Origin: Puccinia triticina
Lineage: Eukaryota; Basidiomycota; Pucciniomycetes; Pucciniales; Pucciniaceae
Direction of reading: 5' to 3'
DNA: 64,000 bases
NCBI RefSeq assembly: GCF_026914185.1
Contig: NC_070575.1
Location: forward strand, 1,426,001-1,490,000
Made by a program: the position numbers and the translations under genes. The notes under the pieces are model-generated. The model searched no databases. It had not been told where the DNA came from and was given only the letters and a program-made list of their open reading frames with translations. Positions 10,801-49,288 of this stretch are shown here, piece after piece (positions within the stretch are counted from its first letter, which is position 1; each line of letters opens with the position of its first letter).

Positions 10801-13800
10801 ATGCCTAAAACAACCAATCTCGTTTGCCATTGTGAATTCTATGGGTGCAACACCACGCAGCATGCAGAAGATGGCGGTGGAATTGTTCCTGGGAGGGTCT
10901 TGGGACGGAAAGACTATCAATTGCATCAGAAGAAAGCAACTATGCAACTCCAGAAGGAAGGGCCGAATCATCCGGAGGCACACCCAATGGGCTCTAATCC
11001 GATCCGGGTGAGTTGAATCACATCTGCTTTAAAAGCATAGTTAGATCTTGAGCTAATCCAAGTTTGACCCAGACTGGTCTGACTGCCTCCACCTCTAATC
11101 CACTGGAAAACAACACAAGGAAGGCGCCACTTTTGGAGGAGCAGTTTTGCACACAGGTCATGATTCAGATGGCCCAATCTGTCTTAAAAGACAAACTGAG
11201 CAAAGATGGGTCCGCATCTTTCCTCGAGTCAGCAAGGCAGAACATCTCATTCTTGGCAGAGCTGTGGAGCACTGAGGAACGAATTATTGATGCTAAAGCA
11301 ATGATCCAACAGATTCCCAAAACTAGAGATGCAGTTTTTCATCGACTTGGCCTTGTACCAGATCTGACAACACAAATATGTTGCCAAAAATGTTTTGCAC
11401 TCTACCCTCTGATAAAAGGAGACAAAAATCCTCCGATCACATGCACCCAGTCCTTCTTTTCCCAATATCAGGGGTATTGTAAGTGGGCTAAGTTGCAAGA
11501 AATCGTACCCAGATGTGATCAAGCCCTCTTCAAACTCGATAAACAGCAAGCATCAAAACCAATTCGGACATACTCATACTTAACTCTAAAGTCATGGTTG
11601 AAACAGCGGCTTTCTCAGAATTCTTTCGAGACCTTGCTAGACTCCAGCCTTCCCAAAACTAGATGGGAACCACACCACGACATGGAAGATGTGTGGCATG
11701 GTCAAATCTGGCGCGAATTCCCCAACTCGGACGATGGAACTGGGATATTTACCCAGAATTCTGGAAATCTTGTGTTCAGCCTATATCTTGACTGGTTCAA
11801 TGCCGAAGGAACTTCAAATCTGGGGAAGCATAACTCTGTTGGAGCGATTGTCTTGATCTGCTTGAACCTTCCTCCAAATCAGCGCTACAAGCAGGAAAAC
11901 ATATTCCTTTTCGGAATTATCCCTGGGCCCAACGAACCCAGTCTAGACAAGGTGAACCATCTCTTACGACCGCTGGTGAATGAATTGAAAGAATTTTGGA
12001 ATGGAGTCTTCTTTGAATCCACTGCTTCTCATGCTCAAGGAAGAACTATACGGGCTGTGATCTTTCCCCTGATCGCAGATCTTCCTGCTCTCCGGAAGGT
12101 TGCTGGATTTGGAAGTCACGCCTCAATTAGGTTTTGCTCTTTTTGTATGTTGAGCAAGCATGAAATTGAGGAAACGGACACCACAAAGTTTACCCGGCGG
12201 ACAAATGAAGAGCACCAAAAACATGCAAAACTTTGGCTTCAACTAGAAAATGCGACTGAACGTAAGAAGTTTGTGAAGGAACATGGCGCAAGATGGAGTG
12301 TGCTCAATGAGCTCCCATACTGGAGGCCAATAGAATTCTGCTCGATTGAATTGATGCATGCCTTGATTTTGGGTGACTTGAAAGATCACACGATGCGCTT
12401 CATGTCATTGCCATCAGTCGCATCCAAGCTTAAGGATATTCAAGAGAAGGATGCGGAATGGCAGAATGACCAGTCATATACCGATACTCCGTTTGCAACA
12501 AATTGTGTCCCTAACTCCACCAACAAGGGCAAGCAGAAATTAGACAATATTGAAGAATCAAATCAAACCTCTGAAAAACCAAACAAGCGAGCCCGTGCAG
12601 CCAAAGCCAAGCAAACACCAGCGACAACAACGCTAGGTCTTGGTCAAAGCAGAACATGTAGTGGTGCTGGTGCAACATCAGATGGGTCATCTGCCCATTC
12701 CTATAGCCTGCGGATGCGGAAGAAGGCGCTGTGTGACGCGAATGAGGAGGTAACCACCGATTCCGCAGATGAGAGTGGAAGTGATCACACTGCCACTCGT
12801 CCTCGACATAGAGCTTGCAGAGCTGCTGCATCACCAATTCCGGATTTCAACCAACCAAAACTCTTGCCAGAGGAGCTGGACATAGTACGGCGGACTATCT
12901 TGCATACAATTGTACCCTCTTGGATTGATAGGGTTCCACGCAACTTGGGATTGGCTACCCACGGATCTTTAAAAGCAGCAGAATGGCTGATACTTTACAA
13001 GATCTACTATCCCATTGCCTTGATTCCTCTTTGGACCACAGCATACAAGGATTGCGCAACTGAGGAAAGCAAAATAAGGATATCCTCACTCCTAGAATCA
13101 ACTACCTTGCTATCCAAAATTTCTCACTTCCTGACTCTCCCAAAGATCAAACTTCAAGATCTTGATGAGCTTGACAGTTTAATCTTGGATTATCAAAAGT
13201 GTCTTCAAAAAGGCTGGCCAGAAGCACCAAGCAAGCCAAATCTACATCTGACACAGCATTACTCTGAAGTTATCCGCCGATTTGGCCCACCTCGATCGAC
13301 AGCAGCTTGGGCACAGGAAAGAGTTAATGGAATGTTGCAGAGGATGCCAACAAACCATCACATTGGTTAGTCTCATGCTTATTTGTGTGTAATTATTGCC
13401 ATTGTGAGAATTTAATTACTGAGAAGGTGACATGTGTATTGTACTTAGATGATATACCGAAGACATTGATGAAGGAATGGCATATCAACTCAACATTCCA
13501 GTTAGTTCTCAAAGACCACACTGCAAAACACAACCGCGGCTCGGAGGACAACAATAAGAAGAAATCTACTCAGTTGAACAGAACTCTGATGTCAAAATGG
13601 AAGCGGGCGGTGGCTGGAAAGGAAGGTTCAAGGGGAAAGCTTGGTCAACATGCAGGTGTACCCCCACTTAACTCAACAGTTGATCTTGTTGAATACATCA
13701 AACTCAACGGCAAGACATTCACAACTAAAGATCGGCATCCAGAAAATTCCTTGGTCGAGTTCTACCTAGGGAAGGACCAGCGATTCGGTGAAGTGGAGCA

Positions 13801-42740: not shown

Positions 42741-43399
42741 AGACTCCCATTTCCTTGTGTATTCATTCAAAATTAGTTGCTCAAAAAATACAAAAAAAAA
42801 AAAAATGAGAATGGAGCTGAGCTTCTTGGCTACACAATACATATTTCATGAAGAAGTTTGGATGATTTTTGGAAAAGATACAGCCAGGCAAAAAAGTTGT
42901 GTTTGTGCGTACCTGTCACGCCAAAAAACGGGGATGTTGAATTTTACATGCTATGTTTTACATTGTATCAACCATGTAAAATGCATAGCATGTAAAATTC
43001 AATAATTGGTGCAATTTCATGAATTTTACATTTGGTTACACAAATATCACAGCATGTAAAACAACCCAATGTAAAAGCCACTGTGTAAAATCACACTGGT
43101 ACTTTCCACCCTGCAATTTTACAGTCTATTTTTTACATCCTACGTACCATGCAAAAATCATGCAATGTAAAACTGCAGACACACCCAAAACTCTTGAGAT
43201 TTACACAATTCTGTACATCAATGTAAAATCAATATTATGCAAAAATATCACTTCCGCCACCCAATAATCAATTTTACATGCGGTGTAAAAAATAAGCAAA
43301 ATTATGCAAATTAAATTTTCAAAACAACTTACAAGAAAACAAGTGTATGATGCACTGTGATGCAGCACAACAACAGAACTAAAATTTGAAAATACTATA

Positions 43400-43725
43400 A
43401 AAACAATGTCCGGACGGTGGTGCCGACACAGCTCCCAGATCACCAACACTGTCCTTTGGACCTCTGTCTCCACCAAGACCTCTGTCGCGGCCAGTCGGAT
43501 GGAAATTCCCCCCATGTCCAGGACGTCGGCCCCTGCAGACACCGTGCTCTAGCGAGTTCCGCACCGCATCCCCTAACGTCAAGGAGATCCCTCCATCCAA
43601 GAACGAGTCTGAGGTGCAGTTCACAATGGACATCAGATGAGTCCGGCTGCTCAGATACAAGGGCCGACAACAGCCCGCCGTTATGATCAAATGTGTCTTC
43701 CTAACACCGCTGCCCATCTCTGTAA
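43400..43725 (-). pseudogene. Dihydropteroate synthase fragment A (N-terminal part)
   Basis: Two minus-strand frames, shifted relative to each other near 43540, together show the start of a DHPS domain: SIVNCTSDSFLDGG (family signature [I/V]-N-x-T-x-DSF-x-DGG), then SAGADVLDMGGISIRLAATE and VQRTVLVIWELCRHHRPD. DHPS joins p-aminobenzoate to the pterin in folate synthesis and in fungi is part of a trifunctional FOL1-type protein. The frameshift and lack of flanking domains make this a broken captured fragment. Confidence 0.75.
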
Positions 43726-43989
43726 ATGTGCTAAAAATTTTGGCCTCTGCGTCACTGAATGGTTCATCTTCCTGGCCACACTGAAAACAACAAAACAATT
43801 TTACAGCCTGATTCAAAGTCATCAGTTAGATGAGAAAGAAAAATGGTGATGATGGTGGTGAAGATGGTGATGGAAAGAAGGAATCTACATGACATAATTT
43901 CAAAGCGGTGCAAAAGTTGCATTTGGATTAACGTCTTGAAAAGCTTCACTGAATTTCTTTGGAAGACATTTTCACTTTTCCAAATTCAC

Positions 43990-44262
43990 TAGAGCGAGCC
44001 GATAAATGCTGGACAGGCAAGGTTTTCCGCGGATGTGCATCAGCACGTAGGGCACGTCCAAGCGGGCAACCGTTGGGAGCATGGCTTCGTCGGCTTCCAC
44101 GCCGGAGAAATCGTTAACAATTTTCGCGCCCGCTGCGACGGCTGCTTCGGCCGTTGCCGTGCGGAAAGTGTCGATGCTGATGTGGCAGTCCAGACGGTGG
44201 CGCCGACGCAGCTCCCGGATCACCGGCACCGTCCGTCGGATCTCTGTCTGCACGGGACTAGT
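43990..44262 (-). pseudogene. Dihydropteroate synthase fragment B (middle part)
   Basis: The frame encodes EIRRTVPVIRELRRRHRLD, then HISIDTFRTATAEAAVAAGA, KIVNDFSGVEADEAML and PYVLMHIRGKP, the second and third strands of the DHPS barrel with the conserved SIDT and IVND motifs. It repeats the RTV.VI.EL.RRH block of fragment A, so the element holds two overlapping, independently captured or duplicated pieces, in scrambled order. The GC-rich composition differs from the surrounding AT-rich sequence. Confidence 0.78.
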
Positions 44263-44659
44263 CGGACAGGTCGCCCTTGACCCTGGCAAGCAGCCAGTCG
44301 ATCCCCATGTCTTGCTTGCCTTGGACGGCGGGCGAAGAGCTCGGTCTGCGAAGCGGGCGTCCGTCGCGGACGGAAATGATTAAGGAGTCAAAGTCGAAGC
44401 GATCCTAGAACTTGAAGATGCCAAGGAGGAGCTTGCCCACTAGATGGTTCAGTGCGCCCGAGGCCGTGTGCGGAGTGGTGTTGAGTCAAGTGGTACTCCG
44501 GGGACAAAGGTGGTGTTGATGTTGAGCAGCTCAGTGGGCTCTGCTGCTGCTGTGGATTCCTTGGACTGAATTCTTGACGCGGATGAGGTGTGGATGGGCT
44601 CGGATGTAGTCGGGATGTTGGAGGTTAGTGAGGTGGTTGATGACTTCGAGTTAGGTGAT

Positions 44660-44830
44660 GAGGAGTCGGAGATGGGCCCCTGGCTTCCGGAGGGGTCGCA
44701 GGACCCTCGGGCCTTAGCCCACTGCTTGATAGCCATGCCGATGTGCGGTGAGAGGTGATGGTAGGCGCGAATGAGCGCCGAGTTACACCAACTGAGCCGG
44801 CGAACCTGGATGTGGTATTTGGAGCGCACT
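44660..44830 (-). pseudogene. Terminal nucleotidyltransferase (Cid1/Trf4-like) fragment
   Basis: The minus-strand frame contains NSALIRAYHHLSPHIGMAIKQW then AKARGSCDPSGSQGPISDSS. This resembles the segment after the catalytic domain of Cid1/Trf4-type poly(A)/poly(U) polymerases (residues N-x-x-L-x-x-Y-x-x-x-x-P-x-x-x-x-x-x-x-x-K-x-WAK followed by the substrate loop). Only this short part is present; the continuation is unrelated Ser/Thr-rich sequence. It is a captured gene fragment, with family assignment from motif recognition only. Confidence 0.55.
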
Positions 44831-46464
44831 ATCATGAGGAATTATATTGGATGAAAAAAATAATGTCAGCAGCGGGGGGCTGGCGGAGACAGATGATAGA
44901 TAGCCAAGAGCATGGAAATGGAAGAAAAACTTGAGGACAACCAAAGACAGGAGGGGGTAGGTGGTTGTTCCGTTGGGCCTGGCCATGGTGGTGGTTGTGC
45001 ACCGGTGTACGTGAGACAATTTGATGACCGTTGGGTGGGATTGGTGTAGGCAAGTGGGCGGTGGTTTGAGGGAGGGGATGGTGGTGTGTGGGATGGAGGG
45101 GCAGGAAAGGTCCACTTTGGGAGACTTTGGGATGGGCTATCATGTGTATTCCCCAAGCAAGGTTGGAAAATTGCATGTATCAGGGCAAGTCTGGGGATTT
45201 ACACCCTCTGGGAACATGGTTGTGAGCAGACAGGATGTGAAACTAACAGATGTGGATGCTCAGAGGTGTTTTTACAGTATGCCCTTTACATTCTCAGACT
45301 TTACGTGCTGTGGTTTTGAGGCAAGTCACTGTAAAATTACATTTGGGGGGGAATTTCACAACTTTTACATGGGGAGGGCTTTAAATGCTTGTGTCACTGT
45401 AAAGCAGTACCATGTAAAATTCTCCCATCCCCCAAAAAACTCCATTGTTTCTAAGGGCCCAATTATAAACAGTTATTGGAATTTTATTCAAAAAAAATCC
45501 AAATTCATTCAAAACTTTTTTTGTCTGGATTTTTCTTATGTACAGATTCAAAAATAGCCCAAATGACCTCGAGGAGGTCATTTGGGATCAAAAATTTTCA
45601 AATTTTTGTTATTGAAGCAATTTACAGGCATACAGTACATGTATGCAACACTGTACCGCACCAATCCAACGGTAGAACTTAGTTGTACCGTTGGTAATGC
45701 CGTGTATTACAGATCTCTGCCTCGGGTGCACAGGAGATCTCTGATCTGGTTCCGTCGAGTCCACATCGAGGGGATGTGTTCACCGGGCGCCCGAGTATCA
45801 TCCGCAACGTTTTGGCCAGGGGCCTGTTGTTCCCCAGTTCCGTTATTATTAACCACCTGCAATGAAAAAGAACGAATCCCCATGATTCCTGCATGCGGTC
45901 GACCCATGGTGCCTGCCCCAACAGGGGCTACCAGCCCCCCGGGGACTATTTTGCCCTGCCTCGTGCCCCCAAGTGAGCGTCCCCTGCTCGTCTGAGCGAC
46001 GCGCCTGCTGCCACATTGGGCCGATAGGTGAACCGACCCTTGTGCGCCTCCGGCACGCCCGCCCCGTTGTCCAGCTCGCCTGTCGGTTATACGGATTATG
46101 GCTGACCGTTGGGCCGGCCCTTTGCAGCCGCGCAGCCAACAAGGCTTGTCGACACGGGTACCACCCTGTCGCGCGATTTCGCCGCCCCTCAAATTGCCAT
46201 TTATGCGACCCCCAACGGGTCGACCATGGGACAGGGGCATCCCATGGCCGAACCGGAGTGGCGACCCAAGGCCGCCCTTTTGGAGTGCGGCGACCTCGGG
46301 GCGACCCACTTGGGAGGCCCCTGGGACCTCCCTGACGGTCCCGAGGTTGTCTTTGGGGGTGCCTGTGGGGCGGTGTTCCTAGGGTAGACCCAGGGTCGCC
46401 GCCTGATGGCTGGGTCACGGGGGCGCCCCACTGATGGTTTCTGGGGTGACTCAACCGCCCCGCG

Positions 46465-47643: not shown

Positions 47644-47980
47644 GAGTTAAGTTCGTGTAGTCCCGCGCGGTGGAGATGCTGTCCCTCTGACGGAGGCTCG
47701 CTTCGCGAGTTCAGCCGCACCCCCGGGGGCCCGAAGTCTCGAGGGACTTTCTTTTCGCTCGTCCTCTGACCCAAAACTCGGGCCACCGTCAAGCAAACCA
47801 TCATTCTTCTCATCTCTCAGACTGCCTGCCCTCCTCGCTTCTCTTACAGGTATGAAACTTGTCATCTGGGATTTCCTTTGACATCGTATGTTTTACTTCC
47901 TAATTAATCATTGAATCATTTTCTGCTCATTCGACAAGCCAGAAGGACCCACGAATATTCCATACAAGCCAAATAGTACA

Positions 47981-49288
47981 ATGAGGACCAACTCGGATCA
48001 CTGCACCGGACCAGTTAATCAAAAGCAAGAACTAATCTCTGCTACATCTGACGCTGCATTCAAAAGACTGTTCAAAGAGCGCTCCATTCTCATCCCGTTT
48101 CTCAATAGTATTTTGAAGGAGGATCGAGTTGTGATTGCCGAAGTTAAAAAAATCGCCAAAGTCGTACGTTCCGCTCCAGGTTCACCAACCAAGCAACACG
48201 CAACTCCTCATAAACGGAAACGATCTTCAACAATTGATGACGTGCAATACATTACCAATGAGTGCCCGGGTTTTTACAAATCGCACCGGACTATACGCTA
48301 CGACCTTGTTGTGGTAACCGCCGACAATACCATTATTGACATTGAAATGCAGACACAACCCCAAACTTTTTATCTTGACAGAATGGTATACTACAGCTCT
48401 CGTCTGATTTGTAACTACAGCGGTTGGAGTGGCGACAAGCAACCGCGCAACGTTTACAAGGAGTTCAATGGTGAACGCATCTCCGCTACGGAGCTAGGAA
48501 CAAGCAAGTGGAATTACTCATGTAACCCAGTTTACATCATCTCAATCTGTAATTTCGCGTGGAGTCGTGTCCCGACTATATCCAAGTCGCTACATGAACA
48601 TTGGCTTTTGTGGCAGTCGCCACATTGGAAAAAAAGTGCATGTCTCCCAAAGAACCCAAACAACGTCGTGGCTGTAGCGCAAGACAAACCGGTTGCACAA
48701 TTTGTTTTTGTATCCCTCCCGACTTTTCGCGACGTTCAGGGCCACGACGTAAACAACACGCTGGAAAAAATGATCTGGATTTTCGCTAATGTTAAACCAC
48801 AAACAACCCTGCAAATGCTTCCCGAATGGACAAAGACTGACGAACTTCTCAAGTCAATCATTGACCTGCTCCGATATGGTGCTCTCACCCCCAAAGAGCA
48901 ACAAGAATACGAGACTTGGAAAGAAGAAGAAATCCAATATTTAGCAACAATGGGGGACGGGATACAAAACGGAGTGGAAGAAGGTCTGAAAGAAGCGTTG
49001 GCAGTGGTTGAAGCTGAACGCAATTGAGCCGAAACTGAACGCAATCGAGCCGAAGCTGAACGCAATCGAGCCGAAGCTGAACGCAATCGAGCCAAAGCTG
49101 AACGCAATCGAGCCAAAGCTGAACGCAATCGAGCCAAAGCTGAACGCAATCGAGCCAAAGCTGAACGCAATCGAGCCAAAGCGGCCGAAGGCAAACTCAA
49201 TCAAGAACGGGCTCGAATCGCGGAGTTGGAAAGGCTGTTGGCCAGGCTGCAAGGTGGGGGCATAGAACCACCACCGAACATGACATGA
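47981..49288 (+). pseudogene. Rpn/PD-(D/E)XK nuclease-transposase-like gene with heptad tandem repeat, one in-frame stop
   Basis: One frame of 436 codons from ATG has a single TGA at 49025-49027. The N-terminal part has SDAAFKRLFKERSILIPFLNSI (residues 23-44 in part), matching the opening of PD-(D/E)XK Rpn-type proteins, and YDLVVV..IIDIEMQ with the catalytic Asp 108 and Glu 122-x-Gln 124. Such proteins are recombination-promoting nucleases best known from bacteria. The C-terminal part is a 21-bp tandem repeat (about 49010-49190) encoding AERNRAE/K heptads, a charged coiled coil, followed by RIAELERLLARLQGG. The stop falls inside the repeat where neighbouring units have CGA, so one C-to-T change explains it. 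Even if read as truncated at 49027 the nuclease part is intact, so activity cannot be excluded. The direction of any transfer from bacteria is inference. Confidence 0.72.

What the first reader, a model, noticed from the sequence alone, without database searches (positions are those of the whole stretch)
42930..45432. Pack-type transposon that captured two overlapping DHPS fragments and a nucleotidyltransferase fragment
A 2503-bp segment has matching inverted ends (GGGGATG..), an exact 8-bp flanking duplication CAAAAAAC, and TGTAAAA-packed sub-terminal regions, yet carries no transposase. Inside are GC-rich pieces of at least two cellular genes in one orientation: dihydropteroate synthase twice (different but overlapping parts, order scrambled) and a Cid1/Trf4-like piece. 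Gene capture by TIR elements is well known in plants and less documented in rust fungi. DHPS is an antifolate target, so antisense or chimeric transcripts could matter.
Basis: partly seen in the sequence, partly recalled or inferred. Interest (0 to 1): 0.75.

Follow-up and report, generated by a model that had tools for sequence, protein, structure and literature searches.

The report
Rust transposon carrying scrambled gene pieces
In the genome of a wheat-rust-type fungus sits a small jumping element that has no enzyme of its own and instead carries broken, rearranged pieces of two ordinary cell genes, showing that these fungi too have the kind of gene-shuffling transposon best known from plants.

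Summary
Window 42930-45431 is a 2502-bp non-autonomous TIR transposon. Its target-site duplication is 9 bp (CCAAAAAAC), not 8, and seven paralogous empty sites run through the junction. Its ends recur with different interiors. Five related copies encode all or part of a rust protein with a GCM-type finger, an RNase-H/DDE core and a USP (ubiquitin-protease) fold. This fits MuDRF, a GCM-bearing branch of Mutator described in rusts in 2011, so the element is best read as a MuDRF-type Pack-MULE.

The cargo is real: two DHPS pieces overlapping by about 70 bp in permuted order, and a Cid1/Trf4-like nucleotidyltransferase piece, all in the transposase gene's direction. Intron sequence is kept, so capture was from DNA. 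The source-type genes lie on other contigs. A second element with these ends carries a SAM-domain gene piece. The DHPS pieces also occur in four Helitron-like repeats, and an adjoining non-gene stretch in those and a fifth, so the cargo was probably passed between transposons.

The pieces are truncated or frame-broken. No function, and no antifolate effect, is supported. It is a new variant of a known kind; the USP domain and the cargo relay are the most interesting parts.

The parts
42921..42929 (.). left 9-bp target-site duplication CCAAAAAAC
   Evidence: empty sites
45432..45440 (.). right 9-bp target-site duplication CCAAAAAAC
   Evidence: empty sites
42930..45431 (+). whole element, 2502 bp, non-autonomous MuDRF-type (Mutator-like) element with gene-fragment cargo
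42930..42981 (+). left terminal inverted repeat (imperfect, about 52 columns)
45380..45431 (-). right terminal inverted repeat (imperfect)
42930..43384 (+). left subterminal region, 32% GC, 14 TGTAAAA/TTTTACA motifs, shared in part with other copies (about 71-83%)
43408..43877 (-). DHPS piece B: upstream part of the DHPS exon plus intron sequence; shared with Helitron-like repeats
43781..43877 (-). retained 3' part of the intron that precedes the DHPS exon in the gene: acceptor TTTTCAG ending at 43781 and a branch-like CTAACTGAT at 43829-43821; the 5' splice site is not included. Splice sites assigned by motif (recalled) and frame, no RNA evidence
43897..43990 (-). non-gene stretch ('filler'), otherwise found only in the five Helitron-like repeats
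44021..44255 (-). DHPS piece A: downstream part of the DHPS exon, 78.7% identical to the gene; overlaps piece B by about 70 bp of gene sequence
44253..44800 (-). Cid1/Trf4-like nucleotidyltransferase piece, 64.6% identical in DNA to the gene on contig 13, several stops
45011..45431 (-). right-end region, 81-82% identical to the corresponding end of the coding copy on contig 2, where the transposase gene starts further in and reads leftwards

Best explanation
A Pack-MULE of the MuDRF branch of Mutator. It keeps both ends of a coding MuDRF-type element but has host-gene DNA in place of the transposase gene. It is (or was) moved in trans by the GCM-DDE-USP protein encoded by relatives with the same ends, and leaves a 9-bp duplication. 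Shown: ends, duplication, empty sites, multiple copies, coding relatives with the same ends, cargo identity and orientation, retained intron sequence. Inferred: that this protein binds the TTTTACA/TGTAAAA repeats and moves this element. Inferred with moderate support: the DHPS cargo came second-hand from an ancestor of the Helitron-like repeats that carry the same DHPS segment and the same non-gene neighbour, whereas the nucleotidyltransferase piece was added in the Mutator-like element. The cargo lies in the transposase gene's direction behind the retained right end, so any transcript from that end would be sense, chimeric and broken; most likely it does nothing.
Confidence: 0.82

Rival explanations
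1. Same element, but the DHPS pieces were captured straight from the HPPK-DHPS gene or from a lost paralogue by this family, and the Helitron-like repeats took theirs separately from the same source.
For: Each carrier keeps gene stretches that the other lost; the DHPS pieces are only about 67-80% identical to today's gene, so a lost paralogue is possible; further DHPS relics exist at L030 and L039.
Against: The non-gene filler next to the DHPS piece is shared by both carriers and was seen nowhere else in the search; shared differences against the gene prevail, though three sequences without an outgroup do not say on which branch they arose.
Confidence: 0.35
2. A Pack-type element of another TIR superfamily (hAT, KDZ, P or similar) rather than Mutator.
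For: Pfam does not recognise the transposase as MULE; Hermes (hAT) appears in the Foldseek list, though at E 0.31; TIRs are short; subterminal repeat clusters also remind one of hAT, CACTA and KDZ elements (recalled).
Against: 9-bp duplications in 5 of 7 pairs, where hAT, KDZ and P make 8 (recalled; 8 bp for P and for one hAT also in passages); GCM + DDE matches the published MuDRF branch.
Confidence: 0.1
3. A functional regulatory element whose chimeric or antisense RNA acts on the DHPS gene.
For: Nine 21-base words, the longest exact stretch being 26 bases, are shared with the gene; the cargo is uniformly oriented.
Against: Pieces are truncated or frame-broken, identity is low, and the two copies differ at 3.8% of cargo sites and 3.1% of the end sites that align, so no sign of constraint; no RNA data.
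Confidence: 0.03
4. Chance: a pseudogene cluster between unrelated repeat ends.
For: The region is repeat-rich, and the flanks on both sides are themselves repeats.
Against: A second, 96% identical copy with the same ends and cargo, 9-bp duplications and empty sites.
Confidence: 0.01

Closest known systems
Pack-MULEs of plants
   Same: Non-autonomous Mutator-like elements with gene fragments; definition read in PMC3310237 (passages). Capture from DNA, pieces of more than one locus, GC-rich cargo (54.5%) beside an AT-rich left end (32% GC).
   Different: Fungal host, MuDRF ends with short TIRs, apparent take-up of cargo from another transposon class.
MuDRF elements of rusts and other Basidiomycota (PMC3164196, passages)
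   Same: GCM domain plus DDE transposase, distant MuDR branch, present in Puccinia.
   Different: The passages describe one protein with GCM and DDE only; the copies here continue into a USP fold with conserved Cys, His and Asp. Gene-fragment carriers are not mentioned in the passages read.
Histone H3 transduplication by hAT in Pyrenophora and Mycosphaerellaceae (PMC3538342, PMC6710886; passages)
   Same: Host gene sequence inside a fungal DNA transposon.
   Different: hAT, one gene amplified, captured without introns as a transcript or retrocopy according to PMC6710886; here Mutator-like, several fragments, intron sequence retained.
Gene-carrying Helitrons of fungi (Pleurotus, PMC4289320, passages)
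   Same: The Helitron-like DHPS repeats have a hairpin, then CTAG, then T, as Helitron 3' ends do.
   Different: That paper reports no P. ostreatus gene fragments in intact copies; here host HPPK-DHPS sequence is carried. The 5' start is TT, not TC, and no helicase was looked for.

Membership tests
Pack-MULE | non-autonomous (no transposase inside) | tested here: met
   no GCM, DDE or USP match in the window at 1e-6
Pack-MULE | carries host gene fragments whose source-type genes are elsewhere | tested here: met
   DHPS and nucleotidyltransferase pieces; genes with open DHPS and nucleotidyltransferase frames on contigs 3 and 13
Pack-MULE | ends shared with coding Mutator-like elements | tested here: met
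   ends shared with L045 and the contig 2 element, which code for the GCM-DDE-USP protein; Mutator membership of that protein rests on the rows below
Mutator superfamily | 8-11 bp target-site duplication (PMC6446971) | tested here: met
   9 bp exact in 5 of 7 pairs, 8 of 9 in one, none in one
Mutator superfamily | MULE-type DDE transposase | tested here: inconclusive
Mutator superfamily | long TIRs, commonly hundreds of bp | tested here: not met
   about 52 imperfect columns; the same review lists MULEs with TIRs of 22-51 bp and some families without TIRs, so this is typical rather than defining
MuDRF | GCM domain and DDE in one protein | tested here: met
MuDRF | sequence match to the Repbase MuDRF entries | not testable with these tools
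   Repbase not held
Helitron (for the DHPS repeats, not the window element) | 3' hairpin followed by CTRR, insertion before T | tested here: met
   3 of 3 loci read (contigs 9, 12, 15): hairpin, CTAG end, then T
Helitron (for the DHPS repeats, not the window element) | 5' TC | tested here: not met
   4 of 4 loci with that end start TTAAAAATCC after an A; the contig 9 copy lacks it
Helitron (for the DHPS repeats, not the window element) | relation to a Rep-helicase coding element | not tested
   -

The most novel reading that the evidence does not exclude
Rust fungi run a Pack-MULE system of their own: MuDRF elements whose transposase is fused to a ubiquitin-protease fold pick up genomic DNA in the transposase's direction, take cargo over from Helitron-like carriers (with rearrangement through a tandem or circular intermediate), and are themselves multiplied by retrotransposons they land in, so gene pieces travel through three classes of mobile element in turn.
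Probability: 0.35. Interest if true: 0.68.

Novelty: new variant of a known kind. Interest (0 to 1): 0.5.

Why it matters
Gene capture by Mutator-like elements is best documented in plants. In fungi the cases that I saw in print are hAT and Tc1/Mariner elements and Helitrons (PMC3538342, PMC6710886, PMC4289320; passages). A MuDRF Pack-MULE in a large rust genome says the same kind of machinery shuffles gene pieces there, from DNA, and that cargo can be inherited from another transposon. It also warns annotators: predicted genes such as PTTG_03117 look like element cargo. A transposase with a USP fold raises a testable question, whether the element edits ubiquitin marks on its own protein.

Tried and rejected
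An 8-bp duplication was dropped because the base at the right end varies between copies and matches the ninth flank base. My first reading of the intron as a complete 24-nt GT-AG unit was wrong: in the gene the frame has TGA and TAA inside an 87-nt intron GTACCG...GGGCAG, and the element keeps only its 3' part. Ordinary MULEs of this genome as partners: none of the 150 PF10551 matches listed falls in these elements; one weak match (contig 13, 4769710, E 1.2e-7) lies 0.8 kb from a transposase-like stretch, on the strand opposite to that gene. Pfam on transposase ORFs and on ten homologues: nothing over cut-off. Sequence search of P0025 and of both alignments against solved structures: no credible relative. 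Foldseek on the DDE-bearing model: nothing at E <= 0.001. The pair of ends in L047 shows no shared duplication and was counted as a miss. P0055, first thought to be the source gene of the L042 cargo, is 98% identical to the element-borne piece over 62 residues and is more likely element cargo too; the match at contig 8 stays unidentified. The contig 2 Helitron-like copy (L033) has no DHPS match in the held DNA. Paper searches for gene capture by Mutator-like elements in rusts or for captured DHPS (listings, plus passages of eight papers) showed none; most subscription journals and preprints are not held.

Full report
What genome. The window is bases 1426001-1490000 of contig 18 in a 122.8-Mb, 18-contig assembly without names. 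The best named relative of the transposase frame searched is a Puccinia triticina entry (73%), and a cargo frame of a related element is 89-98% identical over parts to two P. triticina entries. A rust transposon survey gives 3.2 Mb as 2.6% of a P. triticina haplotype, i.e. about 123 Mb (PMC12210899, passages). I therefore take it to be P. triticina or close kin; this is an inference.

The element. Window 42930-45431 has imperfect inverted ends (52 columns, score 40 against a best of 24 among about 2000 random pairs). TGTAAAA/TTTTACA occurs 19 times inside and 15 times in the remaining 61,498 bases. Joining the two flanks and searching the genome listed 44 matches (40 of 141 candidates were scored). 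Seven of them run from query base 3 to 130-135, across the junction at base 120, at 86-90% identity, some with small gaps. The element sits in an older repeat, and unoccupied copies of that repeat show the empty site.

The family. A left-end query gave 37 matching stretches and a right-end query 16; paired by position they outline elements of about 1.9 to 13.7 kb. Where both ends could be read, five of seven pairs have an exact 9-bp duplication, one has 8 of 9, and one (L047) has none. A second copy with the same cargo lies on contig 5, 96.3% identical over 2215 alignment columns. Its two parts carry matching duplications ATTATAAAC but lie about 20 kb apart in opposite orientation, next to inverted stretches ggcgatcttta. 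The simplest reading is a later insertion of another transposon and an inversion.

The cargo. The source-type genes are a HPPK-DHPS gene on contig 3 (Pterin_bind 5.5e-77 over the whole model in one frame; HPPK 4e-12, its halves in two frames, so an intron or a break there is unresolved) and a Cid1-family nucleotidyltransferase with a 547-aa frame on contig 13 (palm domain 1.9e-22, PAP_assoc 3.5e-7). The element has, on its minus strand, from right to left: the nucleotidyltransferase piece (44800-44253), DHPS piece A (44255-44021, downstream part of the exon), a 94-bp filler, then DHPS piece B (43877-43408, intron sequence and the upstream part of the exon). A and B overlap by about 70 bp of gene; piece A of one copy and piece B of the other are 85-88% alike over 66 bp. 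In the gene an 87-nt stretch with GT and AG ends, a multiple of three, separates HPPK and DHPS in the same frame and holds two stops. The element keeps about the last 97 bases of the corresponding stretch, with an acceptor TTTTCAG and a branch-like CTAACTGAT, but not the donor. Capture was therefore most likely from DNA, unlike the intron-less histone H3 capture by hAT in Mycosphaerellaceae (PMC6710886, passages).

More cargo. The contig 1 element (L044, duplication GTATCTTAT) carries a piece 82% identical to a single other place, a 926-aa frame with a SAM domain, plus a 137-bp piece matching contig 12. A lineage of seven loci (L042 and others) has one 357-bp match elsewhere, on contig 8 at 73%, not identified. 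In both elements where it could be judged, the gene pieces run in the transposase gene's direction; two elements are too few for a rule.

Relay between transposons. DHPS sequence is also found in four dispersed repeats on contigs 4, 9, 12 and 15, about 3 kb long where measured; DHPS order is that of the gene on contigs 9, 12 and 15, and the contig 4 copy has piece B only. A fifth copy, on contig 2, has the filler but no DHPS in the held DNA. At three loci read, one end is a hairpin followed by CTAG and then T, as in a Helitron 3' end; the other end, read at four loci, starts TT after A, not TC, so I call them Helitron-like only. The 3' end query matched five places, four at 94-100% and one at 72%. 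Three of the five repeats contain the filler twice, and in the search it was seen nowhere else outside the window element and its copy. The window element's filler is 90.8-92.3% identical to the upstream filler (5 of 5 loci) and 83.7-84.8% to the downstream one (3 of 3); for the contig 5 copy the ranges are 87.4-89.0 and 81.3-82.6. In the DHPS parts, window element and Helitron-like copies agree against the gene at 49 (B) and 31 (A) sites, against 12 and 22, and 15 and 11, for the other two splits. Yet each carrier keeps short gene stretches that the other lost. The best reading is a common ancestral captured copy, gene-ordered and probably duplicated in tandem, from which the Mutator-like element took an A-filler-B interval. 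A lost DHPS paralogue as common source is the main rival.

Function. Piece B needs two frames and the nucleotidyltransferase piece has several stops; piece A is open but truncated. The two copies differ at 3.8% of cargo sites and 3.1% of the end sites that align, as expected without constraint. The longest exact match to the DHPS gene is 26 bases (29 for the contig 5 copy), with nine shared 21-base words; none with the nucleotidyltransferase. I find no support for an effect on folate synthesis or antifolate response. RNA data were not available.

Verdict. It is a Pack-MULE of MuDRF type, a new variant of a known kind, with two notable extras: a USP fold in the partner protein and a likely hand-over of cargo between transposon classes.

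Noticed in passing
L045:6626-7675, L049:3944-4996, L052:4232-5266, L057:4099-6449: Transposase-bearing copies of the family encode a C-terminal ubiquitin-specific-protease fold with conserved Cys, His and Asp, not mentioned in the passages read on MuDRF.
   Followed up: partly
L025/L026/L036 (contig 9), L023/L027/L038 (contig 12), L024/L032/L034 (contig 15), L028/L035 (contig 4), L033 (contig 2): Helitron-like repeats: four carry DHPS pseudogene pieces with intron sequence, a fifth (contig 2) shares the filler and flanking parts only; shared stretches are mostly 90-98% alike.
   Followed up: partly
L042, L043 and loci on contigs 2, 9, 11, 12, 13: Seven loci of one cargo-carrying element share the same outer flanks (left flank read at five, right flank at six; about 97% over 2.6 kb of left flank in L042 against L043), so the element was multiplied with a larger host repeat; neighbouring frames look like Copia integrase (recalled, not tested).
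   Followed up: partly
L022 and L010 (contig 5, 818 kb and 840 kb): The second copy of the window element is split, its parts about 20 kb apart in opposite orientation with matching duplications; inverted stretches ggcgatcttta at both breaks suggest insertion of another transposon and an inversion.
   Followed up: partly
L030:1551-1874 and L039:1302-1544: Further DHPS relics beside repeats, about 69% identical in DNA to the gene and cut differently, reaching further downstream in the gene.
   Followed up: partly
L029:2109-2667: The HPPK half of the contig 3 gene lies in two frames; an intron or a frameshift was not resolved.
   Followed up: no
window 47915-49024 (+): 370-aa frame with a PD-(D/E)XK nuclease family transposase domain (PF12784, 4.6e-19), downstream of the element.
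   Followed up: no
window 11052-13367 (+): 772-aa frame with Transposase_21 similarity (1.2e-17) and weak Plavaka similarity, probably a CACTA-like element.
   Followed up: no
window 45451-45560: The right flank runs into a common repeat (GGGCCCAATTATAAACAG...) about 10-14 bp beyond the duplication; the contig 5 copy inserted into a similar sequence.
   Followed up: partly
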